From: Candidatus Giovannonibacteria bacterium RIFCSPHIGHO2_01_FULL_45_24 | GTDB taxonomy: Bacteria > Patescibacteriota > Minisyncoccia > UBA11713 > 2-01-FULL-45-33 | Direction of reading: 5' to 3' | Assembly: GCA_001778495.1 (NCBI GenBank) | Contig: MFHE01000006.1 | Coordinates: forward strand, 1-53,086 | DNA length: 53,086 nucleotides | Part shown: positions 29,846 through 48,029 of the stretch, piece after piece | Position numbering within the stretch: the stretch's first letter is position 1 | How the letters are laid out: each line of letters begins with the position of its first letter | Program-made: the position numbers and the translations under genes | Notes under the pieces: model-generated | Seen by the model: the letters and a program-made list of their open reading frames with translations, nothing else | What the model was told of the DNA's origin: nothing | The model's database searches: none

Positions 29846-29868
29846 ACTTAGCAACTGGATTGCTAAGT
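29846..29868 (+). repeat. ACTTAG/CTAAGT palindrome, left copy
   Basis: Arms ACTTAGCAA (29846-29854) and TTGCTAAGT (29860-29868) around CTGGA. It is the inverted copy (22 of 23 bases) of the palindrome at 29923. Confidence 0.75.
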
Positions 29869-29922
29869 TGGATTAAATAAGGCATTATCTCAATAATGAG
29901 AAAATTTAAGTTTATCAGATGT

Positions 29923-29945
29923 ACTTAGCAATCCAATTGCTAAGT
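29923..29945 (+). repeat. ACTTAG/CTAAGT palindrome, right copy
   Basis: Arms ACTTAGCAA (29923-29931) and TTGCTAAGT (29937-29945) around TCCAA. Together with the left copy it bounds a 100-bp element with 54 bp of AT-rich interior. Confidence 0.75.
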
Positions 29946-29975: not shown

Positions 29976-30680
29976 ATGAGATTTGATATAATCACAATTT
30001 TTCCGAAAGTTTTTAGGAGCTACTTTAATGAGTCCATAATTTCGCGCGCCCAAAAAAGGGGACTTGCAAAAATAAAAATTTGGGATTTGAAAAAGTTTTT
30101 GCGCGAAGGAGAGAGGGTTGATGACCGGCCCTATGGCGGCGGCCCAGGGATGGTGCTTAAAATTGAACCGATTGCTAAAGCGCTTGATTCAATTCTTCAA
30201 CTTAGACGTCCGACGTCTAAGTCGGGGAAGACGTCGGACGTCTTGATAACTTTCCTCTCTGCTTCCGGAAAACAATTTAATTCTAAAATGGCTGGCGATT
30301 TCGCCAAGAAATATAAATGGATTATTTTTATCTGCGGTCACTACGAGGGCGTTGATGAGCGCGTTAAATCAATGATTGAAAATTTGAAATTGAAAATTGA
30401 AAATTTGAGCATAGGCCCTTATGTTCTCACCGGCGGGGAACTTCCCGCGATGGTTGTTGTTGACGCCGTTTTAAGAAAAATTCCCGGGGTTTTGGGCAAG
30501 TACGAATCGCTTGAAGAAAAAAGGCACGGCATCGGCGTGCCGGTCTACACCAGGCCAGAAATATTCAAATGGAAGGGGGGAACATACAAAGTTACCAAAA
30601 TCCTTCTTTCCGGTAACCATAAAAAAATAGGAAATTGGCGGATTAAACATAAGATAAAAAATAAAGCTCTGCAGTATTAA
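29976..30680 (+). CDS. trmD: tRNA (guanine37-N1)-methyltransferase
   Basis: 234 aa, normal. MRFDIITIFPKVFRSYFNESI, DDRPYGGGPGMVLKIEPI, ICGHYEGVDERV and the knot region IGPYVLTGGELPAMVVVDAV are all family hallmarks. It methylates G37 next to the anticodon to prevent frameshifting. Residues about 76-90 (LRRPTSKSGKTSDVL) are encoded by a palindromic insertion (30200-30244) in a loop that tolerates length changes. Confidence 0.93.
   Translation: MRFDIITIFPKVFRSYFNESIISRAQKRGLAKIKIWDLKKFLREGERVDDRPYGGGPGMVLKIEPIAKALDSILQLRRPTSKSGKTSDVLITFLSASGKQFNSKMAGDFAKKYKWIIFICGHYEGVDERVKSMIENLKLKIENLSIGPYVLTGGELPAMVVVDAVLRKIPGVLGKYESLEEKRHGIGVPVYTRPEIFKWKGGTYKVTKILLSGNHKKIGNWRIKHKIKNKALQY
30200..30244 (+). 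repeat. Paired palindromes inserted in frame in trmD
   Basis: First palindrome: ACTTAGACGTC (30200-30210), one base, GACGTCTAAGT (30212-30222). Second: AAGACGTC (30228-30235), one base, GACGTCTT (30237-30244). Their cores are reverse complements of each other. Outer ACTTAG/CTAAGT ends match the intergenic palindromes at 29846 and 29923. Confidence 0.75.
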
Positions 30681-30865: not shown

Positions 30866-33800
30866 ATGAAAGATTCTCGCGAAATTATCTTAGAAGGAGA
30901 AAGATATATCACGGCTTCCGAGGCCGCGGCTGTTTGCGGTTATACGCGCATCTATGTTGGGCAGCTTTGCCGCGAGGAAAAAATCAAAGGAAAAAAAATC
31001 GGCACCGACTGGGTGGTTTCCGAAAAATCTATTTTGGATTACAAAAAATCCATCTTGCGGACGCAAGAGAAAATGGAGCCGCAAATTATCCTTACAAAGC
31101 AAGCAATCTTTCATACAACAGATGAATGGGATAAGGAGATTTTAGGCGAGCAACAAAAAGCTCCGAAATTTTCTCTGAAGCAATGGTCGCTGGGAGCGGC
31201 TTCTCTCTCGTCAGTGCTGATTGCCGCGCTGATTTTTTATAACGCTGGCGCAATTGGAAGGAGTATTGCGGGCGCGGTTGAAAGTGTTAACGTCTCCGCG
31301 ATGAAAACAGCAGACACTATTTCACAAAACGCATTTGCCATTGCCGATGCAACTGTAAACAATATTGTCTTTGCGAAGGACGGAATAATCAGTGCTGTTG
31401 AAAGTGTTAACGTCTCCGCGAAAAAATTCGCGAACAATGTTTCGAATTTTGGAAATTCTAGTTTGAAGCTTGCGCAAAACGGCAAAAATCGGGTTTCGGA
31501 AACCGCATTTGCTGTCGCGGACGAAATCAACAATAATGTTGTCTTTGCGAAAGAAAAAATCTTTAACCTTGCTTACGCCGCGAGTCAATCGGTTTTAGAT
31601 TTTGGAAGTTCGGGCTTGGGATTTGCTTGGAATTTAGAGCTTGGCGCTCGGGATTTTGCTCAAGACGCCGCAAGGGCAACTTTAGGCAATATCATCTCCG
31701 TGAAAAAACTTACTGCCGAATTTTTTGAGGTTTTCACTTCACCCTCTTCCCCAACTCTCCTTACTAAGGAGGGAGGGTTGGGAGGCGAGGTTAATGTTAA
31801 AGCAGTGCTCGGGAACGTTTTCCAAAGCATCAAAGACCGGGCTTCGCTGGCTCTTGCTTTGCCCGAATTCTCGCTTCCGTCTTTGCCTTTTACTTTGGAG
31901 GACGTCAAATTCTCCATCACCGACCTAAGAGACAGATTTATAAACAACGTCCTCGGCTGGCGGGGATACATAGCGTCTTTGGGGAGCGACCTGAAACTGG
32001 CGGCAAGAGACTTCTTCTCGGTTAAGCCGCCTGAAGTTGCGGAAGCCCCATCTCCCACAACCCCTCCTTCTAAAGGAGGGGAAAATGAAGGCAGCAAAAT
32101 CATAACTTTCGGAGAGGCGACTTCCACACTTCCCCAAAATCCCCTCCTTACCAAGGAGGGGAAAGGGGAGGTTAGAACAGTAATTGAAAAAATTATCTCC
32201 GGCATCTCTCAAGCCGATTTAGACCAGCGCCTCTCTTCTCTCAACCAAGTCATCCTGGCCCAAGTCCAGCTTTCTCTGGCGGCTTTAGAAAAACGGCTTC
32301 CTTCCAATCAAGTCCAAAACCCCGTTGTCTTTCTCACGACTTCAATCCCCGGGCCTTACTCTTCCTCTCCTTCCCAAACCGGCTCCGGCGTTTCTGCTTC
32401 TTTCGGAGATTTTTCCAACGGGATTTCCACCGGCGGCAACTTAAGAGCTTCAGGAAACGTGACTCTCGGGGCTGAAGGCAAAGACGTATCCGTTACTTCC
32501 AATGTTTGGAATATCACTTCAGCGGGAGCGGCATCGGGGCTGACCTCCCTTACCTCTACTTCAATCAACTCCACTTCTTTAACCACGGGGACGCTTACGG
32601 CATCTTCCGGGAACATATCGAGTGGCTTAGCCGCCTCCTCAACCCTTCAGGTTACGGGGGACATGACTCTTTACGGCAATCTCGCTTTCTTCAACCAAGC
32701 CACCACGACCATTCCGGCTTCTTTAATGAATGCCCTGACCTTCGCCACCTCATCGGCTTCAGTCCCTTTTTTCACCTTTGACACAAAAAACTACAGAATC
32801 GGCATAGGAACAACTTCTCCCGGCGCGACTTTTTCGGTAAGCGGGGACATACTTGCCAGCGGAGGGCTTAACGTCTCCGGCGCTTCAATGAACGTAAACG
32901 CCACCACAACTCTCACCGAACAGCTTTTGGTCACAAAAAGCCCGACAGTTTCTCACACTTTCGGCACTTGGGCTGTTGGCGTTGCCAACTCCGCGGTCAC
33001 GGACTCGGTTGTGGTCATCAACCCGGCTTCGGCGGCGGCGGATACCAACCTTTTCGGCGCCGCGGTTGGAGGAGCGGTCCGCTTTCTGGTTGACGCTGAC
33101 GGGGATGTTTTCGCCAACGGGCTAACCACGGTAGGCGGCACGACTTTGGCTTCAACCACCGCCTCCAACTTCACTGTTGAAAATCAATTTACAATGGGAG
33201 ACGCCCCCAATGCCGACAGCCATATTTTTAATGGAAGAATCACTCATTTAGCCACCACTACCGGAGCCGCGTATACAATGTGGAATTCAACCGTTTCGGG
33301 CGACCTTCTGCGCCTTCAGGACGGAGACACCTCTCCCACCACCAGATTCGTTTTCTCGGCCGCGGGGCAAGCCGCTTTTGGAACCACTACTCACTCTGGG
33401 CTCTCGGTGCTCACTATAGGGGCTACCACAACTACCGCTATTCCTCTTACATTAAAAGGAGTCACGAGCCAATCCGCCGACCTTTTCCGCGTCCTCTCCT
33501 CGTCCGACTCCTCGCTTTTCAACGTGACCGGAGCAGGCAATGTCGGCATCGGGACGACGAGTCCGGCGCAGCTTCTGTCGGTTCAGGGGAATAGTTATAT
33601 TTCAGGAACTTCATTTTTCGGAGGGGCGATTACGGCAACCTCAACTCTCGCCATCTCTGGAGCCATCACTTCCACCGCCTCGGGCGCCAACACTTTTCCT
33701 TACGCTTCCACGACTGCTTTAACTGTTTCAGGAACCGCAAGCACTACCAATTTCACGGCTTCCGCCATGACTTCCGGCTCCGTTCTTTTCGCGGGCGCGG

Positions 33801-36800
33801 GAGGACTTTTATCGCAGGACAATTCAAACCTCTTTTGGGATGATACGAATAACAGACTCGGCATCGGGACGACGAGCCCGTGGGGGCTTCTTTCGGTAAA
33901 TCCCAACGGCATCGCCGGTCCCGCGTTCGTGGTCGGCTCTTCAACCAAGTGCGTTACCGGGGACACCAAGCTTAAACGCCGCCGCAAGAGACGCCGCAAA
34001 AACGGCAAAGGCGAGTGGGAAGAGGAAGAATATTTTGAAGATACGCGGATTGATGAGATTAAAGAAGGAGACGAAATCCTCACGCTGGACGAAAAAACCG
34101 GCAAGCTTAAGGTCTCCCGCGTCAACAAACTTATGGATATGGGCGTTAAAGAAATCTACACTCTGACCACCGCCACCGGCAAAAAAATCCGCACCACCGC
34201 TAACCATCCTTATCTTCTCGCGCCGGAATTTCCGAAAGAGCGCGTCGCGATATTCATTGACGGGGCGAATGTAGAAGCAAGTTTGCGGCATATGAGCGCG
34301 AGGATTGACTACCAAGAGCTTCTTTCGGCGTTCGGCGGGAAAGAAGCGGTTTCGCGCGCGGGATTTTATAAAGTTGATTTCCAGCACAAAGGACAAGGCC
34401 AATTCTTTACCCGGCTCAAGAAACTTGGCTATCGGCTTATTACTAAACCCCTTAAAATCATTGAACAGCGCCATCTCGCCGACGAGCATAAGGGAAATTT
34501 TGACGTTGAGATCGCCGTTGACGCCGTAGAGCGCAAAAACGCTTTTGATACTGCGGTGCTCTTCTCCGGCGATTCGGATTTTGCTTATCTTGCCGAGCGG
34601 CTCCAGCAAAATGGTAAACGTTTATTAGTTATTGCTCCTTATCGGGCCACCGGCAGAGAGCTGCGCAAACAGGCGGACGTGTTTTTAAGCCTCGCCGATA
34701 TGCCCTTCGTTGATTTCGGAGCAACTAAAAAAGCCCCGCAAAGGGGGCATCACAACCGGCTTTCACCGGCACTTCCCATCCTAGCGCAGGCGCATCCCTA
34801 TGTCAACGGGGGGGTGTGGACAAAGGTTTCCGAAATTAAGGAAGGGCAGATGATTGCGACTTCCGGCGCGAACGGCAAACCGGTCTTTGAAAGAATTATG
34901 TCAATTGAAAAAACCGCCGCCGAGCAGGTCTACGACATAGAAGTGGAAGGCACGCACAATTTCATCGGCAACGACATCGTGGCGCACAATACCTATCTCA
35001 CTGTAACCAACGGCGGCAACGTCGGCATCGGGACGACAAATCCCGGGGCAAATCTGGATGTAGATGTGCCGTCAGGTCAAGGTACTATAAGATTGAGTGA
35101 TACTAACGTTAATGTTATTAAATTATCGGACGCTTCCAGTGGTGCTACTACAAACGGGATAATATCAGTATATTCAGGTGGAACTGAAAATATCAAATTG
35201 TTTGCTAGTAGTAATGATTCATCTTGGATTAATGCTGGCAACGTCGGCATCGGGACGACGAGTCCGGCGACAAGATTGTCAGTGCAGGGAAATGGTTTGT
35301 TTTCAGGAAACCTTACAATCGCCGGGCTGACCGCTACCGGAACGGCTTCGTTCAATGCTGACGCAAGAACAAGCGGCTCATCGGCCCTTTGGAGTTTTGC
35401 CGGAGGAGCAGACACCGGTCTTACGGCTTCCACCGAGGCCACTGACGCGCAATTCAATCTGGCCAGAACAAAAACCCACGCCAACGGAACAATCACGCTT
35501 CAGCGGGACGCGTTAATCAATGCCGCGACCCATGCTTTCACCAATTTCGCTTCAGGCAACATAACCGACCTCGCGACTCTCGGGATTACCGGAGCTCCTT
35601 TGGCGGGAACTAATGCCACAACCACCAACGCCCATACCATATATCTGGGCGCCTCTGCCCTTAACGCCTCCACCACCAATTCATACGGCCTTACGGTCAA
35701 CGCCAACACGGGAGCGACAAACAATTATGCCGCGGCTTTTCTTGGCGGCAACGTCGGAATAGGGACGACCTCACCTTGGGGGCTTCTTTCCGTAAATCCC
35801 AACGGCATCACCGGCCCGGCGTTCGTGGTCGGGTCTTCAACCCAGTGCGTTACTGGGGACACTCGCCTTCGTCGAAGACGAAGGAAATCCAAAGGCAAAA
35901 GCTCAAATGCCAAATCAAGCTCAAAGTTCAAAATCCAAAAATTGGGAGAAGACGAGGAATTCATCTATGAAGAAGTCGCGATTGTGGATGTCCAGTCCGG
36001 AGACGAAATCGCCTCCTTGGACGAGACAACCGGAAAAATTGTCTGGTCAAAAGTGAGAGCGCTTATGCATATGGGCCGAAAACCGATTATTGAGCTGGAA
36101 ACGGCGCTCGGCAGGAAAATCAGGACAACGGAAAATCATCCTTATTTTGTTCGCGAACGCGCGTCGGAACCGATTCGAGCGGTGGCGTTTATTGATTACG
36201 CGAATATAAAATCATGGCTTATTGATAAAAAGCTGCGGATTGATCTCGATTTGCTCCACAGGGAGCTAAAAACCTCCGGTGTAAAAGAAGTCAGGTTTTA
36301 CTACGGTTCTGACGAGCTGGGCAAAAATACCTCTTTTTTCGCGGCACTGCGCCGAATGGGCTACGCAGTTATCACCAAGCCAGTTCAGTACTTTGCAGTA
36401 CGGCTTTTGGATATTTTACAAAAGTCTCGGAATCGTCGATGGCTTGATGCGCTTTCACAAAATATCCGCGAGACGCTTCTTAAAGAGTCGAGCCAACTTG
36501 ATACTAAAGGCATTCGCTTGTTTGAGCCGAAAGCAAACTTTGACGTTGAGATTGCGGCAGACGCGCTGGAAATGGCTAATTCTTTTGATGCTGTTTTGCT
36601 TTTCTCCGGCGACGGGGATTTTGCGGATCTCGCGCGACGCCTTTCTGCCAAAGGCAAACAGGTAATCGTAATTTCCGGCAGGAAGTTCATGTCAGGGGTT
36701 TTGATGGGCGAAGCGGACGGGTTTGTGTTTATGGAGCAATTGGCAAAAATGATCCCCGGCCTGGTTTCTTCAGGTGAAAAGGCAAAACCTGCCTTGCGGC

Positions 36801-39202
36801 AGGTCTTGAAGAATAGTAACTCTATTGTAGCAAGGCCGCCGTCCTTGTCAAGCGGGGGGGTGTGGACAAAAGTGGCGAAGCTGAAAGAAGGACAGGAAAT
36901 CGCGGTTTTGGGCAAAAACGGGAAGCCGGTATGGGATAAAATTACAAGCATGCGCGAACTTCCTTCCGAGGATGTCTTTGACATAGAAGTTGAAGGCACG
37001 CACAACTTCATCGGCAACGACATCGTGGCGCACAACACCTATCTCACCGTCACCAACGGCGGCAACGTCGGGATAGGGACGACGAGTCCAGCGAGTTTGC
37101 TCTCGGTTCAGGGCAATGCTCTTTTTTCCGGCAACCTTTCTTTGGCTAATCTCACGGCGACCGGAACAGTTAACTTCACCGGCACCGGAGCGACTACTAC
37201 GATTTCGGGCGGGCTGGTCGCGGGTAATAACGCCGCTTTGGTGGTCAACCAAGCGGCGACGGCAAATAGTCTCTATATTACAAATGCGGGCAACGTCGGC
37301 ATAGGGACGGCTGCGCCGAAAACCCTGCTCCATATAAAAGAAGGCGCCGGCACTGGCTTGACGCCGGACAGCTCGACCTGGCTTTTCATAGACTCGGGCA
37401 CGAACAGCGACATAACGCTGGGTTCGCCCAACGGCAATCTTGGCAGAATCCTTTTCGCGGACCCCCAGAACAACGCCATAGGAATAATCTCCTACAACCA
37501 CGCTTTGGATGCAATGACTTTTACAGTCAACAACGCAACAAGGCTGTCAATAGATGCAGCCGGCAACGTCGGCATCGGGACGACGAGTCCAGCGACAACG
37601 CTAAGCGTCGCGGGCAATACTTATCTTGATTCCAATCTCATCACTTATTCTTCCTCCACCGCCGCCAATCTTACTTTTTCCTATCAGAGCTCCGCGACCT
37701 CAACTTTGCCGCAAAGCGTCAACGCTTTCTCTTTCGCCACTTCAACGACCGCGACGCCGATACTTTCAATAAACGGGCTTAACGGCAAAGTCGGCATCGG
37801 GAGAACGGCAGCAGTAGAACTTGATGTAATTGGACATTTTAGAGTTAGTAATGCTGGAGCTACTAGTATCTACATACAAAATACTGCTTCTGCCCAACAA
37901 TGGGATATACAAAATAAAGTAACAACTAGCAATTTAGCATTTCTTAATCAAGCCGGGACAGAGGTTTTGACAATTCTAAATACTAACGGCAACGTTGGGA
38001 TTGGGACGACGAGTCCGCAGACCAAACTGGAAATCGTGAATACTTCTTCCGGCGCAACCGCAGATCAGCTTTTTATTTCAAATCTTGATTCGGCAACCTC
38101 AACCGCGTCGCGTCTGACTTTCAGAGCAAATGACATTACCAATGGAACTTCAACTGCCGCCATCACTTCAATACTCCAGCAGAACTTTAACACCGGAAAA
38201 GGCGACCTTGCGTTCTCCACGCTGCGCTCCGGCGCCCTCACCGAAGCGATGCGCATCACAAACACCGGCAAAGTCGGCATCGCAAGCACGACGCCATGGA
38301 GAACATTCGGTGTTACCGGCACGGTGGGCTTTGACGGGCTTACGGCCGGAGCCGGAGCCGGAGCTCTCTGCCTCTCCGCGAACAAGGAAGTCACATATAG
38401 CGATGGCGCGGCCTGCACGGGTTCTTCGCAACGTTTCAAACACGACATTAATTCGCTTGGCGCCGGAGCGCTTGAAACGGTATTAAGTTTGCGCCCCGTA
38501 TCGTTCCTTTATAATGACGACATTGGAGTTCGGGGAGAACAGGTCGGTTTAATCGCGGAAGAAGTTTTCAGTATTGACCCGCGGCTTGTCACGCTTGACG
38601 CGTCGTCTACGCCAACCAACGTTAAGTACGCGAATTTGACCGCGGTTCTCGCCAAGGCGATACAGGAACTGAACGCGAAAGTAGAAGCTTTGATGGGGGG
38701 CGCCAGCTTGTCGCTTGATGCCAACGGAAAACTGGTTGTAAGTGAGATTGAAACAGGGAAGCTCACCGTCACCGGCCCGCAAGGAATTACGATTTATGAC
38801 AAAAAAGGACAGGCGGGGTGTTTGAGCGTTGAAGACGTGGCGACGGGAGCAATTTCGGTCACGGCGGGCGCTTGCGGGACCGCCACAAATGTTCAAAGCT
38901 CGGTTTTCAACACTTCGACAACTACAACCGACACCATTCCTCCCACCATCACAATTTTGGGCAACAATCCTGCAACGATTGAAGTCGGCGCGAGCTACGC
39001 GGATTTGGGAGTTAGCGTGACCGACAATGTTGACCAGAATCTTGGCTACACTGCCTCGCTTGACGGCGGGCCGGAGCTTTCGCAAGGCGCTGGGCTTTCG
39101 CTGGATACTTCAACTACCACAACACACACAATTTTATACAAAGCCGTTGACCAGGCGGGGAACGTCGAAACGGCCCAAAGAACGGTGGAGGTGGTTGAAT
39201 AA
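30866..39202 (+). CDS. Giant membrane-anchored surface protein with two NYN-carrying inteins
   Basis: 2778 aa; 2034 aa after removal of both inteins. Residues 10-62 are a MerR/excisionase-like HTH (YITASEAAAVCGYTRIYVGQ). Residues about 107-129 are a membrane segment. Residues 135-260 hold helical repeats (AVESVNVSA twice). From about 560 on, about 12 units of NVGIGTTSP-x-LSVxGN type alternate with Ser/Thr-rich beta sequence. Intein 1 is residues 1029-1375 and intein 2 is 1661-2057, both inserted after VGSST(K/Q) and before TYLTVTNGGNVGIGTT. Residues about 2515-2610 are an S74 endosialidase-type chaperone domain with Ser2520 and Lys2525 (SSQRFKHDI). The C-terminus is a DUF5011/Ig-like domain (PPTITILGNNPATIEVG). 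Three in-frame palindromic repeats encode LLTKEG-like peptides. It is probably a trimeric cell-surface fibre; the cytoplasmic HTH is unexplained. Confidence 0.85.
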   Translation: MKDSREIILEGERYITASEAAAVCGYTRIYVGQLCREEKIKGKKIGTDWVVSEKSILDYKKSILRTQEKMEPQIILTKQAIFHTTDEWDKEILGEQQKAPKFSLKQWSLGAASLSSVLIAALIFYNAGAIGRSIAGAVESVNVSAMKTADTISQNAFAIADATVNNIVFAKDGIISAVESVNVSAKKFANNVSNFGNSSLKLAQNGKNRVSETAFAVADEINNNVVFAKEKIFNLAYAASQSVLDFGSSGLGFAWNLELGARDFAQDAARATLGNIISVKKLTAEFFEVFTSPSSPTLLTKEGGLGGEVNVKAVLGNVFQSIKDRASLALALPEFSLPSLPFTLEDVKFSITDLRDRFINNVLGWRGYIASLGSDLKLAARDFFSVKPPEVAEAPSPTTPPSKGGENEGSKIITFGEATSTLPQNPLLTKEGKGEVRTVIEKIISGISQADLDQRLSSLNQVILAQVQLSLAALEKRLPSNQVQNPVVFLTTSIPGPYSSSPSQTGSGVSASFGDFSNGISTGGNLRASGNVTLGAEGKDVSVTSNVWNITSAGAASGLTSLTSTSINSTSLTTGTLTASSGNISSGLAASSTLQVTGDMTLYGNLAFFNQATTTIPASLMNALTFATSSASVPFFTFDTKNYRIGIGTTSPGATFSVSGDILASGGLNVSGASMNVNATTTLTEQLLVTKSPTVSHTFGTWAVGVANSAVTDSVVVINPASAAADTNLFGAAVGGAVRFLVDADGDVFANGLTTVGGTTLASTTASNFTVENQFTMGDAPNADSHIFNGRITHLATTTGAAYTMWNSTVSGDLLRLQDGDTSPTTRFVFSAAGQAAFGTTTHSGLSVLTIGATTTTAIPLTLKGVTSQSADLFRVLSSSDSSLFNVTGAGNVGIGTTSPAQLLSVQGNSYISGTSFFGGAITATSTLAISGAITSTASGANTFPYASTTALTVSGTASTTNFTASAMTSGSVLFAGAGGLLSQDNSNLFWDDTNNRLGIGTTSPWGLLSVNPNGIAGPAFVVGSSTKCVTGDTKLKRRRKRRRKNGKGEWEEEEYFEDTRIDEIKEGDEILTLDEKTGKLKVSRVNKLMDMGVKEIYTLTTATGKKIRTTANHPYLLAPEFPKERVAIFIDGANVEASLRHMSARIDYQELLSAFGGKEAVSRAGFYKVDFQHKGQGQFFTRLKKLGYRLITKPLKIIEQRHLADEHKGNFDVEIAVDAVERKNAFDTAVLFSGDSDFAYLAERLQQNGKRLLVIAPYRATGRELRKQADVFLSLADMPFVDFGATKKAPQRGHHNRLSPALPILAQAHPYVNGGVWTKVSEIKEGQMIATSGANGKPVFERIMSIEKTAAEQVYDIEVEGTHNFIGNDIVAHNTYLTVTNGGNVGIGTTNPGANLDVDVPSGQGTIRLSDTNVNVIKLSDASSGATTNGIISVYSGGTENIKLFASSNDSSWINAGNVGIGTTSPATRLSVQGNGLFSGNLTIAGLTATGTASFNADARTSGSSALWSFAGGADTGLTASTEATDAQFNLARTKTHANGTITLQRDALINAATHAFTNFASGNITDLATLGITGAPLAGTNATTTNAHTIYLGASALNASTTNSYGLTVNANTGATNNYAAAFLGGNVGIGTTSPWGLLSVNPNGITGPAFVVGSSTQCVTGDTRLRRRRRKSKGKSSNAKSSSKFKIQKLGEDEEFIYEEVAIVDVQSGDEIASLDETTGKIVWSKVRALMHMGRKPIIELETALGRKIRTTENHPYFVRERASEPIRAVAFIDYANIKSWLIDKKLRIDLDLLHRELKTSGVKEVRFYYGSDELGKNTSFFAALRRMGYAVITKPVQYFAVRLLDILQKSRNRRWLDALSQNIRETLLKESSQLDTKGIRLFEPKANFDVEIAADALEMANSFDAVLLFSGDGDFADLARRLSAKGKQVIVISGRKFMSGVLMGEADGFVFMEQLAKMIPGLVSSGEKAKPALRQVLKNSNSIVARPPSLSSGGVWTKVAKLKEGQEIAVLGKNGKPVWDKITSMRELPSEDVFDIEVEGTHNFIGNDIVAHNTYLTVTNGGNVGIGTTSPASLLSVQGNALFSGNLSLANLTATGTVNFTGTGATTTISGGLVAGNNAALVVNQAATANSLYITNAGNVGIGTAAPKTLLHIKEGAGTGLTPDSSTWLFIDSGTNSDITLGSPNGNLGRILFADPQNNAIGIISYNHALDAMTFTVNNATRLSIDAAGNVGIGTTSPATTLSVAGNTYLDSNLITYSSSTAANLTFSYQSSATSTLPQSVNAFSFATSTTATPILSINGLNGKVGIGRTAAVELDVIGHFRVSNAGATSIYIQNTASAQQWDIQNKVTTSNLAFLNQAGTEVLTILNTNGNVGIGTTSPQTKLEIVNTSSGATADQLFISNLDSATSTASRLTFRANDITNGTSTAAITSILQQNFNTGKGDLAFSTLRSGALTEAMRITNTGKVGIASTTPWRTFGVTGTVGFDGLTAGAGAGALCLSANKEVTYSDGAACTGSSQRFKHDINSLGAGALETVLSLRPVSFLYNDDIGVRGEQVGLIAEEVFSIDPRLVTLDASSTPTNVKYANLTAVLAKAIQELNAKVEALMGGASLSLDANGKLVVSEIETGKLTVTGPQGITIYDKKGQAGCLSVEDVATGAISVTAGACGTATNVQSSVFNTSTTTTDTIPPTITILGNNPATIEVGASYADLGVSVTDNVDQNLGYTASLDGGPELSQGAGLSLDTSTTTTHTILYKAVDQAGNVETAQRTVEVVE
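31755..31774 (+). repeat. Palindromic repeat, CTCCTT-ACT-AAGGAG copy
   Basis: Degenerate copy of the repeats at 32061 and 32141, set within an outer CCCAAC/GTTGGG stem. In frame it encodes TLLTKEGG. Confidence 0.65.
32061..32081 (+). repeat. Palindromic repeat, 9-bp arms
   Basis: CCCCTCCTT, loop CTA, AAGGAGGGG. In frame it encodes PPSKGGE in the giant protein. Confidence 0.8.
32141..32161 (+). repeat. Palindromic repeat, 9-bp arms
   Basis: CCCCTCCTT, loop ACC, AAGGAGGGG; arms identical to the copy at 32061. In frame it encodes PLLTKEG, another reading frame of the same repeat. Confidence 0.8.
33950..34990 (+). other. Intein 1 (Hint domain) with nested NYN nuclease domain
   Basis: 347 residues, 1029-1375 of the giant protein. 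Splicing blocks: A, CVTGDTKL with Cys1029; B, TTANHP with Thr1111 and His1114; F, VYDIEVEGTHNFIG; G, NDIVAHN with His1374 and Asn1375; the +1 extein residue is Thr1376. A very basic stretch (KRRRKRRRKNGKG) follows block A. The place of the homing endonuclease is taken by an NYN domain at about 1125-1265 with Asp1132 and Asn1135 (IFIDGAN), Asp1213 and Asp1219 (FDVEIAVDA), and Asp1236 and Asp1238 (FSGDSDF). No LAGLIDADG or HNH motif is seen. All residues needed for class 1 splicing are present. Splicing and nuclease activity are inferred. Confidence 0.85.
35846..37036 (+). other. Intein 2 (Hint domain) with diverged nested NYN domain
   Basis: 397 residues, 1661-2057. Block A CVTGDTRL (Cys1661), block B TTENHP (Thr1755, His1758), block F VFDIEVEGTHNFIG, block G NDIVAHN (His2056, Asn2057), +1 Thr2058. 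The NYN domain keeps Asp1777 and Asn1780 (AFIDYAN), Asp1893 and Asp1899 (FDVEIAADA), and Asp1916 and Asp1918 (FSGDGDF). It carries about 50 extra residues before the second acidic block. The terminal Hint blocks and the flanking extein are nearly the same as in intein 1 at DNA level, but the NYN parts differ strongly, so the copies arose by duplication and the nuclease then diverged or was exchanged. Confidence 0.85.
36788..36803 (+). repeat. CCTGCC-N4-GGCAGG palindromic repeat in intein 2
   Basis: Same arms as the intergenic copy at 14792. It lies in frame in the linker between the NYN domain and intein block F. Confidence 0.6.
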
Positions 39203-41775: not shown

Positions 41776-42786
41776 ATGTTTTTCATAAAAAAAATCGGAA
41801 TAGATTTGGGAACGGCCAACACGTTGGTTTATATTCCCGGGAAAGGAATAGTGTTAAACGAGCCCTCGGTTGTGGCGGTGACGCTCCCGGAAAACCGCGT
41901 CTTGGCCGTGGGGAATGAAGCCAAGGTGATGATTGGCCGCACGCCGGAGACGATTGTCGCTTACCGGCCGATGAAAGACGGGGTGATCGCGGATTACCGC
42001 GTGACGGAAGCGATGCTGCGCTATTTTATCTCCAAGACGACCGGCAGGTGGAATCTCGTCAAGCCGGAGGTTTTGGTTTCCGTGCCCGCGGGCGTGACTT
42101 CAACGGAGCGCAGGTCCGTGGTTGAGGCGGCGGTCAAAGCCGGAGCCAAGTCGGCGTATGTCGTAAAAGAGCCGGTACTCGCGGCAATAGGCGCAGGCAT
42201 TCCGATACACGAACCACAGGGGCATATGGTGGTTGATATCGGCGGAGGGACGGCGGACGCGGCGGTGATTTCCTTGGGCGGGATAGTAAGCTCAATTTCG
42301 GTAAAAGTCGCCGGCAATAAAATAGACCAGGCAATCGCCGATTACATTAAAAAGCAATTTAATCTGGCGATAGGAGATTCAACCGCCGAGCAGATAAAAA
42401 TCGGCATCGGCTCCGCGATTCCGATTGAGGAAGAGCTTACGATGGCCATAAAAGGACGGGATTTTCTCACCGGGCTTCCGAGGTCCATTGACATCCGCAC
42501 GAACGAAGTGGTTAAGGCGATAGACGGCGAGCTCCGGGATATAGTGAAAGCCATAAAACAGGTTTTGCACAACACTCCTCCCGAACTCGCTTCCGATATC
42601 ATTGAGAACGGGATAGTAATGACCGGCGGAGGGTCGCTTCTCCGGAACCTGAACGTTTTGGTTTCAAGGTCAACCGGCGTGCCGGCGGCGGTAGCCAAGG
42701 ACGCGCTTTACTGCGTGGCCAAAGGAACCGGCATCGCTATGGAGCATCTTGAATCTTATAAAAAAAGCATAATTGCCAAAAGATGA
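41776..42786 (+). CDS. mreB: Rod-shape actin homologue MreB, copy 1
   Basis: 336 aa. Actin-fold phosphate loops GIDLGTANTLVYIPGKG and DIGGGTADAAVISLGGI, plus the adenosine motif MTGGGSLLRNLN. It forms membrane-bound filaments that direct wall synthesis. It follows murA by 2 bp and overlaps the clamp-loader-like gene by 4 bp. A second, more typical mreB lies at 46977 in front of mreC; here TTD is TAD in phosphate loop 2, so the two are diverged paralogues. Confidence 0.92.
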   Translation: MFFIKKIGIDLGTANTLVYIPGKGIVLNEPSVVAVTLPENRVLAVGNEAKVMIGRTPETIVAYRPMKDGVIADYRVTEAMLRYFISKTTGRWNLVKPEVLVSVPAGVTSTERRSVVEAAVKAGAKSAYVVKEPVLAAIGAGIPIHEPQGHMVVDIGGGTADAAVISLGGIVSSISVKVAGNKIDQAIADYIKKQFNLAIGDSTAEQIKIGIGSAIPIEEELTMAIKGRDFLTGLPRSIDIRTNEVVKAIDGELRDIVKAIKQVLHNTPPELASDIIENGIVMTGGGSLLRNLNVLVSRSTGVPAAVAKDALYCVAKGTGIAMEHLESYKKSIIAKR

Positions 42787-43923: not shown

Positions 43924-44985
43924 ATGGCAATCGCGTTTTTGATATTTTTGGCGGCGCTGCTACTTTTGGTCATTTCTCACGAGGCGGGGCATTTTTTCGC
44001 GGCGCGTGCTTTTGGGATAAAAGTTGAAGAGTTCGGTTTTGGAATTCCGCCGCGCATTTTTGGGTTGTGGCGGGATAAGCGCGGCACGCTTTTTTCTTTG
44101 AACCTTCTGCCTTTCGGCGGGTTTGTGAAAATTTTTGGAGAGGAGGGAAAAGAAGTTTCCAACCCGCAAAGTTTCGGTTCCAAACCGGCTTGGGCGCGCG
44201 CCTCGGTGCTTATAAGCGGCGTTTTGGCGAATGTATTTTTGGCGTATATTTTATTTGTTTTTGTAAGTGGTTTGGGTGTTATGGAAGCGGTTTCCGAAGA
44301 CGGGGCGGCGCTTTATCCGGACGCAAAGATAACGATTTTGGAAGTTGCCCCGAACTCGCCGGCGGAGAGTGCGGGCATACAAATAGGCGACAAAGTAGGC
44401 GGCTTTAAAAAAATAGAAGGATTGCAAAAATTTTTAAAAGAAAATGCCGGCAAAAGCGTCGTTTTAAATATTTCTCGCGGCGGAAAAGAGCTGTTTATTG
44501 AAGCATCTCCGAGAAAAACGCCTCCGGAAGGGGAAGGCGCTTTGGGAGTGGCTTTGGGATGGACAAGAATAAAAAAAGCTCCGTGGATGCTTGCTCCTCT
44601 GGAAGGGGCCAAACTCACGGGGCGGGCGGTTTGGGGAACCATATCGGGATTTTACTGGCTCGCAAAGGATTTTTTGGCGCAAAGACCGCCCGAAGTTGAG
44701 GTGGCCGGCCCGGTGGGAATTTTTAACATCACCGCCTCCGCCATCGGCGCCGGGTGGGGGTTTCTGCTCACTCTTTTGGGGCTGCTTTCAATAAATCTCG
44801 CTATTATAAATATAATTCCTTTCCCGGGCCTGGACGGCGGCCGGCTATTTTTTGTGCTTTTGGAAGTCGTTCGCGGCAAGCGCATTTCTCCAAAAACCAG
44901 CGCTTTGGCCCACAGCTTGGGACTTATGATTTTAATCGCCCTCATGCTTGCCGTAACCTACCGCGATATTGCAAAAATTTTCTGA
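43924..44985 (+). CDS. rseP: Site-2 zinc protease RseP-like
   Basis: 353 aa, membrane-embedded. The first helix has the zinc motif ISHEAGHFFAARAFG (His19, Glu20, His23), a PDZ domain spans about residues 125-210 (PNSPAESAGIQIGDKVGGF), and the C-terminal helix carries FPGLDGGRLFF with the third zinc ligand Asp. It cuts membrane-bound substrates such as anti-sigma factors or leftover signal peptides. Its TGA stop forms the beginning of the palindromic region upstream of the RAYT gene. Confidence 0.92.
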   Translation: MAIAFLIFLAALLLLVISHEAGHFFAARAFGIKVEEFGFGIPPRIFGLWRDKRGTLFSLNLLPFGGFVKIFGEEGKEVSNPQSFGSKPAWARASVLISGVLANVFLAYILFVFVSGLGVMEAVSEDGAALYPDAKITILEVAPNSPAESAGIQIGDKVGGFKKIEGLQKFLKENAGKSVVLNISRGGKELFIEASPRKTPPEGEGALGVALGWTRIKKAPWMLAPLEGAKLTGRAVWGTISGFYWLAKDFLAQRPPEVEVAGPVGIFNITASAIGAGWGFLLTLLGLLSINLAIINIIPFPGLDGGRLFFVLLEVVRGKRISPKTSALAHSLGLMILIALMLAVTYRDIAKIF

Positions 44986-44991
44986 CCAACT

Positions 44992-45012
44992 GGTCAACCT
45001 GGCAGGTTGACC
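44992..45012 (+). repeat. RAYT-flanking palindrome, left
   Basis: Arms GGTCAACCTG (44992-45001) and CAGGTTGACC (45003-45012), perfect around one base. TTGACC of its right arm is also the -35 box of the transposase gene. A smaller dyad TGACCA-AC-TGGTCA overlaps it on the left. Confidence 0.8.
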
Positions 45013-45034
45013 AAAGAGTGCCCGCGGGTATAAT
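45007..45034 (+). promoter_or_regulatory. RAYT gene promoter built from the palindrome
   Basis: -35 TTGACC (45007-45012), 16-bp spacer, -10 TATAAT (45029-45034), 8 nt before the ATG at 45043. Confidence 0.65.
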
Positions 45035-45042
45035 ATAACGAC

Positions 45043-45714
45043 ATGAACAAGGAAATAACTTTTGAGGGCGAGCATTCGGTATACCATATTTTTAGCAGAG
45101 GCGTAGAAAAACGTGATATTTTTTCTGATGACGACGACAGAAATAGATTTTTATTTTTGCTCTGCGCGCTTCAGGGTAATGTATTTTTCAATCACATTTC
45201 CAGCTTAGCGAAAAAATTTGGTCAACGTGGCACGTCGGCGCTTCAGGAAATTGAGCGAGACATTTTTAATGCGCAGATTGTTGAGCTTATCGGGTTTGTT
45301 TTGATGCCAAATCACTATCATTTGATGCTTCTGGAGTTACAAGAAAATGGAATTAGTAAGTTTATGAGCAGATTAGGAAATAGCTACACTAAATATTTTA
45401 ACCTTAAACACAAGCGCAATGGCTATTTGTTCAGCAGCCACTGCAATAAAATATTGGTTGATACTAATGAATATCTTTTGCATTTATCTGCGTATATTCA
45501 TCGCAATCCTAGAGAGTTGATTGGCTGGCGCAATAAAGAATCTAAGTATCCATGGTCTAGTTATCAAGATTATATCGGTTCGAATAGATTCGGAAATTTT
45601 ATAAACAGGTCTATTTTGTTAGATCAATTTTCTAGTCCTGAAGAGTACGGCGCGTTTGTAAGCAGCAGTAAAGCAAAGGATTACGAAGATTTTTTGGCCA
45701 ACCTGCCAGATTGA
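45043..45714 (+). mobile_element. REP-associated Y1 (HUH) transposase gene, RAYT
   Basis: This is a 223-aa coding gene. It belongs to the Y1_Tnp family: HSVYHIFSRGVEKRDIF at the N-terminus, the HUH motif MPNHYHLML (His91, His93), the likely nucleophile Tyr115 or Tyr118 in GNSYTKYFN, and NGYLFSSHCNKILVDTNEYLLHLSAYIHRNPR. Such enzymes nick and rejoin single-stranded palindromes. It is flanked by inverted copies of a 21-bp palindrome (44992 and 45696); the right copy contains its stop codon. It is AT-rich relative to its operon neighbours and interrupts the spacing between rseP and proS, so it is an acquired element. Confidence 0.85.
45220..45240 (+). repeat. Degenerate internal copy of the RAYT palindrome
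   Basis: 16 of 21 positions match the left flanking palindrome (GGTCAACGTGGCACGT start). It lies in frame in the transposase, encoding the FGQRGTSA segment. Confidence 0.4.
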
Positions 45715-45716
45715 CC
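45696..45716 (-). repeat. RAYT-flanking palindrome, right (inverted)
   Basis: Arms GGCCAACCTG and CAGATTGACC; its reverse complement matches the left palindrome at 19 of 21 positions. It contains the transposase stop TGA (45712-45714). Both copies are followed by AAAG. Confidence 0.75.
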
Positions 45717-45737
45717 AAAGTTGTGGAGTTTTATTTT

Positions 45738-45772: not shown

Positions 45773-46984
45773 ATGCGTTTAAGCGAGCTTTTTACTAAAA
45801 CCCGAAGGACTCCGCCCAAAGACGAGGAGAGCGCGAACGCCATTTTTTTGGAGCAGGGAGGATTTATTAAAAAAGAAGCGGCCGGAGTTTATACTTTTCT
45901 GCCCTTGGGGTTGAGAGTTTTAAATAAGGTAGAAAATATTGTCCGGGAGGAAATGGACAGAGTCGGGGGCGCAGAGATTTTGATGCCCGCGCTGCATCCA
46001 GCTGAAAATTGGGAGGCGACAGGCAGGTGGAATAAGTTTGACGCGCTTTTTAAAACCGAAAGCCGTTTCGGCGGCAGGTACGCTTTGGGTCCGACGCACG
46101 AAGAGATAATTTATCCTTTGCTTAAGCATTTCTTGAGCTCGTATAAAGACCTGCCGATTAAGGTTTACCAGATTCAGACTAAGTTTAGGGACGAAAAAAG
46201 GGCAAAGGCCGGGCTTTTGCGCTCGCGCGAGTTTCGGATGAAGGATTTTTACAGCTTTCACGCAGGCGACAAGGAGCGCGATAAGTTTTACGAAGAGATG
46301 AAAAAGGCCTATCTTAAAACTTTCAGGCGTATTGGGCTTAAAGTGATAGTGGCGGAGGCATCCGGCGGAACTTTTTCGGAGCTTTCGCTGGAGTTTCAGG
46401 TCGCCTCGCTTGCGGGAGAAGACACTTTGTTTTTGTGCAAAAAGTGCGGTTCTGCGCGAAATAAAGAAATCGCCGCCAGCGGCGAAGAATGCCAAAAGTG
46501 CGGCGGAGAAACGGAGGAAATTAAAACAATAGAAGTGGGCAACATTTTCCCGTTAAAAGAGAAATTCGCCGAGGATTTTGGCTTGAAATTCAAAGACACC
46601 AAAGGCAAAGAGCACCTGGTCTCCGCCGGATGCTACGGGCTGGGAACGACGCGCGTAATGGGCACGGCAGTGGAGGTAGGGCACGATGAGCGCGGAATAA
46701 TTTGGCCGAAAGAAATTGCCCCGTTTCAAATACATCTCGTAGGACTGGATAAAGACGCCTCAAAAATTTACTCCATGATGATTGCGGAAGGAAGGGAAGT
46801 GTTGTATGATGACCGCCGGGGCGCGACGGCAGGAGAAAAATTCGCTGACGCCGACTTCATTGGCGCACCCGTAAGAGTTATCCTAAGCGCCCGGACAATG
46901 CAAGACGGCTCGGTTGAAATTAAAAAACGTTCGGCGAAAAATGCAATCATGGTTAAAATTAAAGATTTGCTCAAATATGTTTAA
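45773..46984 (+). CDS. proS: Prolyl-tRNA synthetase without editing insert
   Basis: 403 aa; the common bacterial form is about 570. Class II motifs are intact: motif 2 QTKFRDEKRAKAGLLRSREFRMKDFYSF, motif 3 GCYGLGTTRVMG, plus LGPTHEEI. The editing domain that normally removes Ala-tRNA between motifs 2 and 3 is gone; a short segment with two CxxC pairs (Cys222, Cys225, Cys240, Cys243) lies in that region, probably a zinc ribbon. The C-terminal anticodon-binding domain is present (VGLDKDASKIYSMM). Its end overlaps mreB by 8 bp. Confidence 0.92.
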   Translation: MRLSELFTKTRRTPPKDEESANAIFLEQGGFIKKEAAGVYTFLPLGLRVLNKVENIVREEMDRVGGAEILMPALHPAENWEATGRWNKFDALFKTESRFGGRYALGPTHEEIIYPLLKHFLSSYKDLPIKVYQIQTKFRDEKRAKAGLLRSREFRMKDFYSFHAGDKERDKFYEEMKKAYLKTFRRIGLKVIVAEASGGTFSELSLEFQVASLAGEDTLFLCKKCGSARNKEIAASGEECQKCGGETEEIKTIEVGNIFPLKEKFAEDFGLKFKDTKGKEHLVSAGCYGLGTTRVMGTAVEVGHDERGIIWPKEIAPFQIHLVGLDKDASKIYSMMIAEGREVLYDDRRGATAGEKFADADFIGAPVRVILSARTMQDGSVEIKKRSAKNAIMVKIKDLLKYV

Positions 46985-48029
46985 TAAACTCTTCGGAGCA
47001 TTTTCAAAAGACCTGGGGATTGATTTGGGCACGGCCAACACGCTGGTTTACGTAAAAGGCGAGGGGATTGTGATAAACGAGCCGTCCGTCGTCGCGCTTA
47101 ACCAAAAAACCGGGCAGGTGGTGGCCATCGGCAATGAGGCGAAGAAAATGGTCGGCCGCACGCCGGGGCATATCGTGGCCATGCGCCCTTTGGTGGAGGG
47201 CGTGATTTCCGACTTTGAAGTAACGGCGGAGATGCTTACTTATTTTATAAAAAGCGTGCACAGCGCGACTTCCCAGCTTTTCGCGCGTCCCAGGGTAGTT
47301 ATCGGCATTCCTTCAAGCATTACTGAAGTGGAGCGGAGGGCCGTACGAGACGCGGCGCATAGCGCCGGAGCGAGGGAAGTTTATTTGGTGGAAGAGCCCA
47401 TGGCCGCGGCTATCGGCGCGCGCCTGCCCATACAGGAAGCGGTCGGAAGCATGATTATAGATTTGGGCGGAGGGACTACGGATATAGCGGTGATTTCCTT
47501 GGGCGGGATAGTCGCTTCGCGCAATCTCCGTATCGCCGGCGACAGATTCAACGAAGATATCGCCAATTACGCCAGGGACGAATTTAAGCTTCTCATCGGC
47601 GAGCGCACCGCGGAGGACGTTAAAATTTCAATCGGCTCCGTCTGGAAAACAAACGAGGTTTTGGAAGGGACTTTGCGCGGCAGGGATTTGGTTACCGGTT
47701 TGCCGAGGGAAGTTTTAATCACGGATGGCGATGTGCGAGCGGCTCTCTCTAAATCCACGAAGGCAATCGTGGAAGCGGTGAAAGCGACCATTGAAGACAC
47801 CCCTCCGGAACTTGTGGCGGATATTATGCGCCGCGGGATACTGCTTGTGGGCGGAGGGGGCCTGATAAGAGGCTTGGACCGGCTCTTGGAAAGGGAAACC
47901 AAAATGCCGGTTTATCTGGTTGAGGATCCGCTTACTGCTGTCGTCCGCGGCACGGGAATAATTTTGGAGGACTTGGACGGACTCCGCGAAGTTTTCATTG
48001 AAGACGACTATGACATTCCGCCAAAATAA
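46977..48029 (+). CDS. mreB: Rod-shape actin homologue MreB, copy 2
   Basis: 350 aa. GIDLGTANTLVYVKGEG, DLGGGTTDIAVISLGGIV and LVGGGGLIRGLD are the actin-fold loops. The ATG at 46977 overlaps the proS stop by 8 bp; a reading from 46914 lies inside proS. This copy heads the standard mreB-mreC-mreD-PBP2 order and is likely the main elongasome filament; the C-terminus has an acidic extension (EVFIEDDYDIPPK) of about 10 residues. Confidence 0.94.
   Translation: MFNKLFGAFSKDLGIDLGTANTLVYVKGEGIVINEPSVVALNQKTGQVVAIGNEAKKMVGRTPGHIVAMRPLVEGVISDFEVTAEMLTYFIKSVHSATSQLFARPRVVIGIPSSITEVERRAVRDAAHSAGAREVYLVEEPMAAAIGARLPIQEAVGSMIIDLGGGTTDIAVISLGGIVASRNLRIAGDRFNEDIANYARDEFKLLIGERTAEDVKISIGSVWKTNEVLEGTLRGRDLVTGLPREVLITDGDVRAALSKSTKAIVEAVKATIEDTPPELVADIMRRGILLVGGGGLIRGLDRLLERETKMPVYLVEDPLTAVVRGTGIILEDLDGLREVFIEDDYDIPPK

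What the first reader, a model, noticed from the sequence alone, without database searches (positions are those of the whole stretch)
44983..45716. RAYT transposase bracketed by inverted palindromes that provide its promoter and stop codon
A perfect 21-bp palindrome (44992) supplies the -35 TTGACC; an inverted 19/21 copy (45696) supplies the TGA. A degenerate copy lies inside the gene. This is a compact self-contained REP/RAYT unit placed between rseP and proS in an essential operon.
Basis: partly seen in the sequence, partly recalled or inferred. Interest (0 to 1): 0.55.

Follow-up and report, generated by a model that had tools for sequence, protein, structure and literature searches.

The report
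Transposase-like gene with triplicate palindromic sites
In ultra-small Patescibacteria, genes for a REP-type DNA-cutting enzyme carry matching copies of their own short palindrome in the promoter, often inside the coding sequence, and at the stop codon, and related palindromes sit in frame inside housekeeping genes, which suggests a low-copy mobile palindrome system that does not avoid genes.

Summary
A 23-bp odd palindrome (44991-45013) supplies TTGACC, 16 nt before a TATAAT and a near-leaderless ATG. A 21/23 copy (45695-45717) supplies the TGA. A degenerate copy (45219-45241, 17/23) lies inside the gene, above its codon-shuffled null.

The larger result is that this layout is general. Of 131 related RAYTs, nearly all from Patescibacteria, 101 have cognate flanking palindromes (0 of 131 in shuffles). 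In 81 of these the best -35 lies inside the upstream palindrome. In 70 a third copy sits in the coding sequence, mostly at one of two fixed places, and follows its own gene's flanks rather than the sister gene's internal copy. There is no GT[AG]G foot.

Solitary palindromes are not extragenic: 45 of 51 lie in long open frames, in genes such as lepA, secA, gltX, gatA and uvrC, often as REPIN-like doublets. Inner stems match a resident RAYT in 29 of 54 (18% cross-genome).

'Self-contained mobile unit' is not shown: the RAYT between rseP and proS looks vertically inherited. New variant of the REPtron/TIRtron kind; cleavage, autoregulation and transposition are inferred.

The parts
44991..45013 (.). 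Promoter palindrome P1, TGGTCAACCTGgCAGGTTGACCA (11-bp arms, 1-nt centre)
45007..45012 (+). -35-like TTGACC, in the right arm of P1
   Evidence: 11 of 12 with the -10, spacer 16
45029..45034 (+). -10-like TATAAT, 8 nt before the ATG (near-leaderless)
45043..45714 (+). RAYT / TnpA-Y1-like HUH protein, 223 aa; HUH = NHYH (residues 90-93), Tyr motif YIHRNP (Y151)
45219..45241 (+). Internal degenerate copy P2 in the coding sequence (about codons 59-66), 17/23 to P1; the ortholog in G002 has 21/23 at the same codon
45695..45717 (.). Downstream palindrome P3, 21/23 to P1; contains the TGA stop at 45712-45714
43924..44985 (+). Upstream neighbour rseP (site-2 protease, Peptidase_M50)
45773..46984 (+). 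Downstream neighbour proS (class II tRNA synthetase core plus anticodon domain)
30200..30222 (.). Solitary palindrome ACTTAGACGTCCGACGTCTAAGT, in frame in trmD; the same 23-mer is the promoter, internal and stop palindrome of the RAYT L074 of a relative
30229..30243 (.). Second core of the trmD doublet, exact reverse complement of 30204-30218
29846..29945 (+). Probable decayed RAYT: palindromes 29846-29868 and 29923-29945 around a start codon and about 9 codons (ATG 29896, MRKFKF...), resembling the L064 RAYT of a relative

Best explanation
This is a RAYT (Y1 HUH endonuclease) with its own low-copy palindrome family, of the REPtron/TIRtron kind, in a Patescibacteria lineage. Shown: most genes of this RAYT family have near-identical odd palindromes at the promoter and the stop codon and usually a third copy inside the gene; these copies change together as the RAYT lineage diverges; related palindromes are scattered through the genome, mostly in frame inside genes and often as inverted doublets; their inner stems match a resident RAYT more often than chance. 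Inferred: the RAYT binds its palindrome as a single-stranded hairpin and mobilises or rewrites copies with that sequence, which keeps all copies matched. Inferred, less certain: because the upstream palindrome contains the -35, RAYT bound there represses its own leaderless transcript. The stop-codon copy is then the other boundary, and the internal copy is an in-frame insertion tolerated in a variable loop and kept matched by the enzyme.
For: Family: Y1_Tnp 1.2e-6; AF2 pLDDT 88, best PDB match 4ER8, then IS608/ISDra2 TnpA. Cognate flanks: joint score >=34 in 101/131 versus 0/131 shuffled. Promoter: -35 inside the palindrome in 81/101, spacer 17 in 67, -10 most often starting 12 nt before the ATG; promoter score >=9 in 79 versus 18 shuffled. 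Internal copy: >=19/23 in 70/101, at codons 50-69 (54) or 145-154 (14); best match to other genes' palindromes mostly 12-15. Concert: class B inner 5 bp agree 5/5 in 16 and 4/5 in 4 of 20 own comparisons; in sister pairs L007/L060, L062/L063 and L175/L181 flanks and internals differ alike (flank-flank 17, 16, 11 of 23; internal-internal 16, 14, 12; own 19-23). Solitary copies: 29/54 match a resident RAYT versus 18% across genomes, 0 of 5000 label shuffles as high; 45/51 in open frames >=150 aa versus 82% of random positions. The same lepA loop carries the core of a resident RAYT in G000 and G004 (AAG), G006 (ACG) and, degenerate, G003 (CGTC).
Against: No cleavage, binding or mobility was observed. 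No clean, unambiguous insertion or excision event was found: in trmD and the glycosyltransferase the boundaries are blurred, and the rseP-proS empty sites may be losses. About 46% of solitary copies have no matching resident RAYT in these draft genomes. The window's internal copy is degenerate, and 31/101 genes lack one. A sigma-70-like promoter match is not evidence of function on its own. The resident class B core sets were assembled by hand.
Confidence: 0.66

Rival explanations
1. Domesticated regulator: the RAYT no longer moves DNA. The palindromes are operators (promoter, internal, end, much like multi-operator repressors), and copies in host genes are regulatory targets or roadblocks.
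For: -35 overlap in 81/101; vertical inheritance between rseP and proS in three genera; the trmD palindrome is identical between G000 and G008 although flanking DNA has diverged.
Against: Solitary copies differ between relatives and follow resident RAYT type; the REPIN-like doublets (20/54) look like mobile-element structure; the HUH and Tyr motifs are kept.
Confidence: 0.2
2. Plain transposable element: RAYT plus two palindromes is an IS200-like unit that jumps whole, with the palindromes as its ends.
For: Palindromes bracket the gene; two family members have only 22-23 nt between rseP and proS; the window holds a probable deletion stub with both palindromes.
Against: Paralogs within the genome are only about 38-40% identical, not the near-identical copies of an active IS; RAYT divergence at this locus resembles that of its neighbours; the Tyr motif is Y---NP, not Y---Q.
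Confidence: 0.07
3. The palindromes are only hairpins that recur by chance or serve as terminators or mRNA stabilisers, unrelated to the RAYT.
For: Short palindromes are common next to genes.
Against: 0/131 shuffles reach the score that 101 real loci reach; sequence-specific match of flank, internal and solitary copies; no T-run directly after the stop-codon copy in the window.
Confidence: 0.03
4. DNA-uptake or replication-related motif shared by genes rather than a mobile repeat.
For: Copies lie inside genes.
Against: Only about 7-25 class B copies per genome, each genome with its own set of stems tied to RAYTs; uptake sequences number in the hundreds to thousands (own knowledge).
Confidence: 0.03

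Closest known systems
REPtron / TnpA-REP (RAYT) with REP sequences (E. coli, Stenotrophomonas; PMC6006769, PMC8266576)
   Same: Y1 HUH protein with NH.H and Y---NP motifs, gene flanked by its own palindromes, several RAYTs per genome each with its own palindrome type, copies elsewhere in the genome
   Different: No GT[AG]G foot, few copies, copies mostly inside genes rather than extragenic, palindrome built into the promoter and stop codon, third copy inside the gene at fixed places
TIRtron / TIRYT (Di Nocera et al. 2013, PMC3733652)
   Same: RAYT-like genes flanked by repeats unrelated to GTAG REPs, some self-complementary, some overlapping the gene ends, moderate copy number
   Different: Here near-perfect 23-bp odd palindromes, promoter overlap, internal copy, in-frame doublets in host genes; Patescibacteria did not appear in the passages I read
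TnpA-Y1 subclass 2.1 (Quentin et al. 2018, PMC6006769)
   Same: NH[YF]H and Y[IV]HLNP-type motifs, length about 220-240 aa, C-terminal extension
   Different: That subclass was reported to lack REP-like sequences; these relatives have clear cognate palindromes. Resemblance is by motif, not by tree
TnpA-REP subclass 2.4 with REPs inside the gene (PMC6006769)
   Same: REP copies within tnpA that keep the reading frame
   Different: Reported generally between HUH and Tyr; here mostly before HUH (codons 50-69) or at/after the Tyr motif (about 145-154)
REPINs (Bertels and Rainey 2011, PMC3116915)
   Same: Inverted doublets of RAYT-linked palindromes able to form one hairpin
   Different: About 38 nt, few copies, within coding sequence
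Rickettsia palindromic elements (own knowledge; not read here)
   Same: Palindromic elements in frame in conserved genes
   Different: Much longer, and no RAYT link that I know of

Membership tests
RAYT / TnpA-REP protein family | HUH motif and single catalytic Tyr in Y---NP | tested here: met
   NHYH 90-93 and YIHRNP from Y151; H91, H93, Y151 and N155 invariant in 20 relatives
RAYT / TnpA-REP protein family | Sequence and fold similarity to TnpA-REP | tested here: met
   Pfam Y1_Tnp above its cut-off; NCBIfam REP_Tyr_transpos matched but below its cut-off (36 of 80 bits); Foldseek best hit 4ER8
Canonical REP sequence | GT[AG]G tetranucleotide at the hairpin foot | tested here: not met
   6/202 palindromes versus 10/202 random positions
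Canonical REP sequence | High copy number, mostly extragenic | tested here: not met
   4 copies of the window's type with up to 3 mismatches; 7-25 class B copies per genome; 45/51 solitary copies in long open frames
REPtron/TIRtron | RAYT gene flanked by its own repeat family | tested here: met
   101/131 versus 0/131 shuffled
REPtron/TIRtron | Enzyme cleaves and rejoins its own repeat | not testable with these tools
   needs purified protein
IS200/IS605 element | Y---Q motif and near-identical multiple copies | tested here: not met
   Y---NP motif; paralogs about 38-40% identical
REPIN | Two palindromes in inverted orientation forming one hairpin | tested here: met
   For the solitary in-gene copies: 20/54 (10 of 11 in the window's genome) have a partner core within 3 mismatches, nearly all directly adjacent and as reverse complement. 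Not so for the RAYT promoter palindromes (10/101)
TnpA-Y1 subclass 2.1 | Phylogenetic placement in subclass 2.1 | not tested
   motif resemblance to the published table only

The most novel reading that the evidence does not exclude
A Patescibacteria-wide RAYT system in which the enzyme keeps its promoter operator, an in-gene copy, its stop-codon boundary and in-frame doublets in essential genes matched to one sequence by writing or converting them, so that it both regulates itself and inserts short peptides into loops of housekeeping proteins.
Probability: 0.3. Interest if true: 0.85.

Novelty: new variant of a known kind. Interest (0 to 1): 0.62.

Why it matters
It gives a candidate substrate for RAYT-like proteins resembling subclass 2.1, which a published survey described as lacking REPs. 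Because each gene carries two to four matched copies with varying inner stems, it offers many natural enzyme-site pairs for working out how a RAYT reads its hairpin. It also points to an enzyme that could explain in-frame palindromic insertions in conserved genes of reduced genomes, as seen here in lepA, trmD and others.

Tried and rejected
Clean insertion boundaries were sought at rseP-proS, in the glycosyltransferase and in trmD: all are blurred by divergence, by a shared intergenic tail (G000/G008) or by length-neutral replacement. lepA is clearer (G009 lacks any insert) but is a hot spot with different inserts. 'Inverted' as a defining property was rejected. A GTAG foot was rejected. A plasmid control set gave only two weak records, so I could not test whether the layout is limited to Patescibacteria. 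Start codons of L009, L057 and L082 were corrected by hand and the fragment L086 was left out of the counts. Uptake sequences, terminators and chance were considered and rejected (see rivals). Literature searches for RAYT with Candidate Phyla Radiation, Patescibacteria or Parcubacteria, and for REPINs within genes, found no description; only open-licence PMC papers are held, so this does not prove absence.

Full report
What was checked. The finding's sequence features are as described: a perfect odd palindrome at 44991-45013, a 21/23 copy at 45695-45717 that holds the TGA stop, a 17/23 copy at 45219-45241, and between them a 223-aa ORF. The right arm of the first palindrome is TTGACC, 16 nt from TATAAT, with the ATG 8 nt further on. 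Near-exact copies elsewhere in the 531-kb genome are at C10:87471 (inside a glycosyltransferase ORF) and C10:63128 (between genes). Four paralogous RAYTs, 38-40% identical, are present.

Each RAYT has its own palindrome. In the window's genome the four paralogs carry different palindromes, again one upstream and one at the stop. In ten genomes of the family there are 2-9 RAYTs per genome. Many fall into a class ('class B') with constant outer arms ACTTGG/CCAAGT and a variable inner 5 bp; the window's belongs to a class with TGGTCAACC arms. Named relatives are almost all Patescibacteria of the Paceibacteria and Microgenomatia groups (one record is labelled Spirochaetia); in a phylum-wide draw 89 of 240 genomes have a match. 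RAYTs identical to family members in Ca. Giovannonibacteria MAGs (L131, L195) tie the window's family to that group.

Statistics. A joint search for two palindromic, mutually matching 23-mers, one near the start and one near the stop, scores at least 34 in 101 of 131 genes and in none of 131 with shuffled flanks. In 81 of the 101 the best -35 lies inside the upstream palindrome; the -10 most often begins 12 nt before the start codon and the spacer is 17 in 67. Real promoter scores reach 9 in 79 cases versus 18 after shuffling. This is a consensus scan on related genes, so the counts are not independent events.

The internal copy. In 70 of 101 genes a copy of the gene's own palindrome matching at least 19/23 lies in the coding sequence, 54 at codons 50-69 (before the HUH strand) and 14 at 145-154 (by the Tyr motif), mostly in one reading frame. 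Some genes have both (L008, L063). In sister genes whose flanking palindromes differ, the internal copies differ too and follow their own flanks. That is concerted change: either the enzyme's specificity selects matched sites, or the copies are rewritten from one another. These data do not separate the two.

Copies in host genes. In the window's genome the solitary class B copies lie in frame in lepA, uvrC (twice), mnmA, rsmI, gatA, gltX, secA, an RNA methyltransferase and membrane or glycosyltransferase-like genes, and a related palindrome lies in trmD in the window itself. Over five genomes 45 of 51 lie in open frames of at least 150 aa, against 82% of random positions in the same stretches: coding sequence is not avoided. 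Twenty of 54 are doublets of a 23-mer and the reverse complement of its 15-nt core. In trmD the doublet sits at one codon position in four genomes of three genera, and in each the two cores remain exact reverse complements, including a variant in G005. In lepA one loop carries palindromic inserts of several different RAYT types across the family and none in G009. Inner stems of solitary copies equal those of a resident RAYT in 29 of 54 cases versus 39 of 216 cross-genome comparisons; no label shuffle of 5000 reached this.

The rseP-proS locus. RAYTs 66-67% identical to the window's lie upstream of proS in G002 and G008, at a divergence like that of RseP and ProS; G003 and G006 have a class B RAYT there; G005 and G007 have 22-23 nt. 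G008 also keeps half of an ACG-type palindrome, and G000 has orphan ACG-type copies but no ACG RAYT. An ancestral pair of RAYTs with differential loss would explain this, as would repeated insertion at a favoured site. It does not show recent transposition.

Mechanism. The protein's motifs, model and closest structures make single-strand hairpin recognition by a Y1 HUH enzyme the leading reading; E. coli and Stenotrophomonas TnpA-REP cleave single-stranded REPs, and some REPs are perfect palindromes (PMC8266576). The -35 overlap makes autorepression plausible but unproven. I put about 0.66 on the RAYT-plus-cognate-palindrome reading as a whole and nearer 0.4 on autorepression.

Comparison and novelty. 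The nearest known kinds are REPtrons and TIRtrons. The GTAG foot, high copy number and extragenic placement of canonical REPs were tested and not met; the flanking repeat family and HUH/Tyr protein were met. Promoter-embedded and fixed-position internal copies, matched across a phylum, with in-frame doublets in host genes, were not described in the papers I could search. I therefore rate it a new variant of a known kind.

Noticed in passing
window 29846-29945: Two palindromes around a RAYT-like start and about nine codons (MRKFKF), probably a RAYT deleted between palindromes, just upstream of trmD.
   Followed up: partly
window 30866-39202: A 2778-aa ORF holds two intein-like (HINT) segments, each apparently enclosing a NYN/LabA-like nuclease domain instead of a homing endonuclease (read by eye from the translation).
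   Followed up: no
L280 (G008:C28) and L278 (G005:C20): lepA is interrupted in frame by about 400-500 nt near residue 64, perhaps an intein.
   Followed up: no
rseP-proS stretches of G001 (L025), G006 (L082), G008 (L018/L090): The last 18-30 nt of rseP are repeated downstream of inserted genes, as if the rseP 3' end, which may hold the proS -35, were duplicated with the insert.
   Followed up: partly
window 41776-42786 and 46914-48029: Two mreB-like paralogs flank the rseP-proS stretch.
   Followed up: no
lepA loop in L271-L280: A single loop of LepA has palindromic inserts of different RAYT types in seven of ten family genomes, a hot spot for in-frame insertion.
   Followed up: yes
L130: A MAG labelled Spirochaetia carries the same RAYT-palindrome layout; transfer or misbinning.
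   Followed up: no
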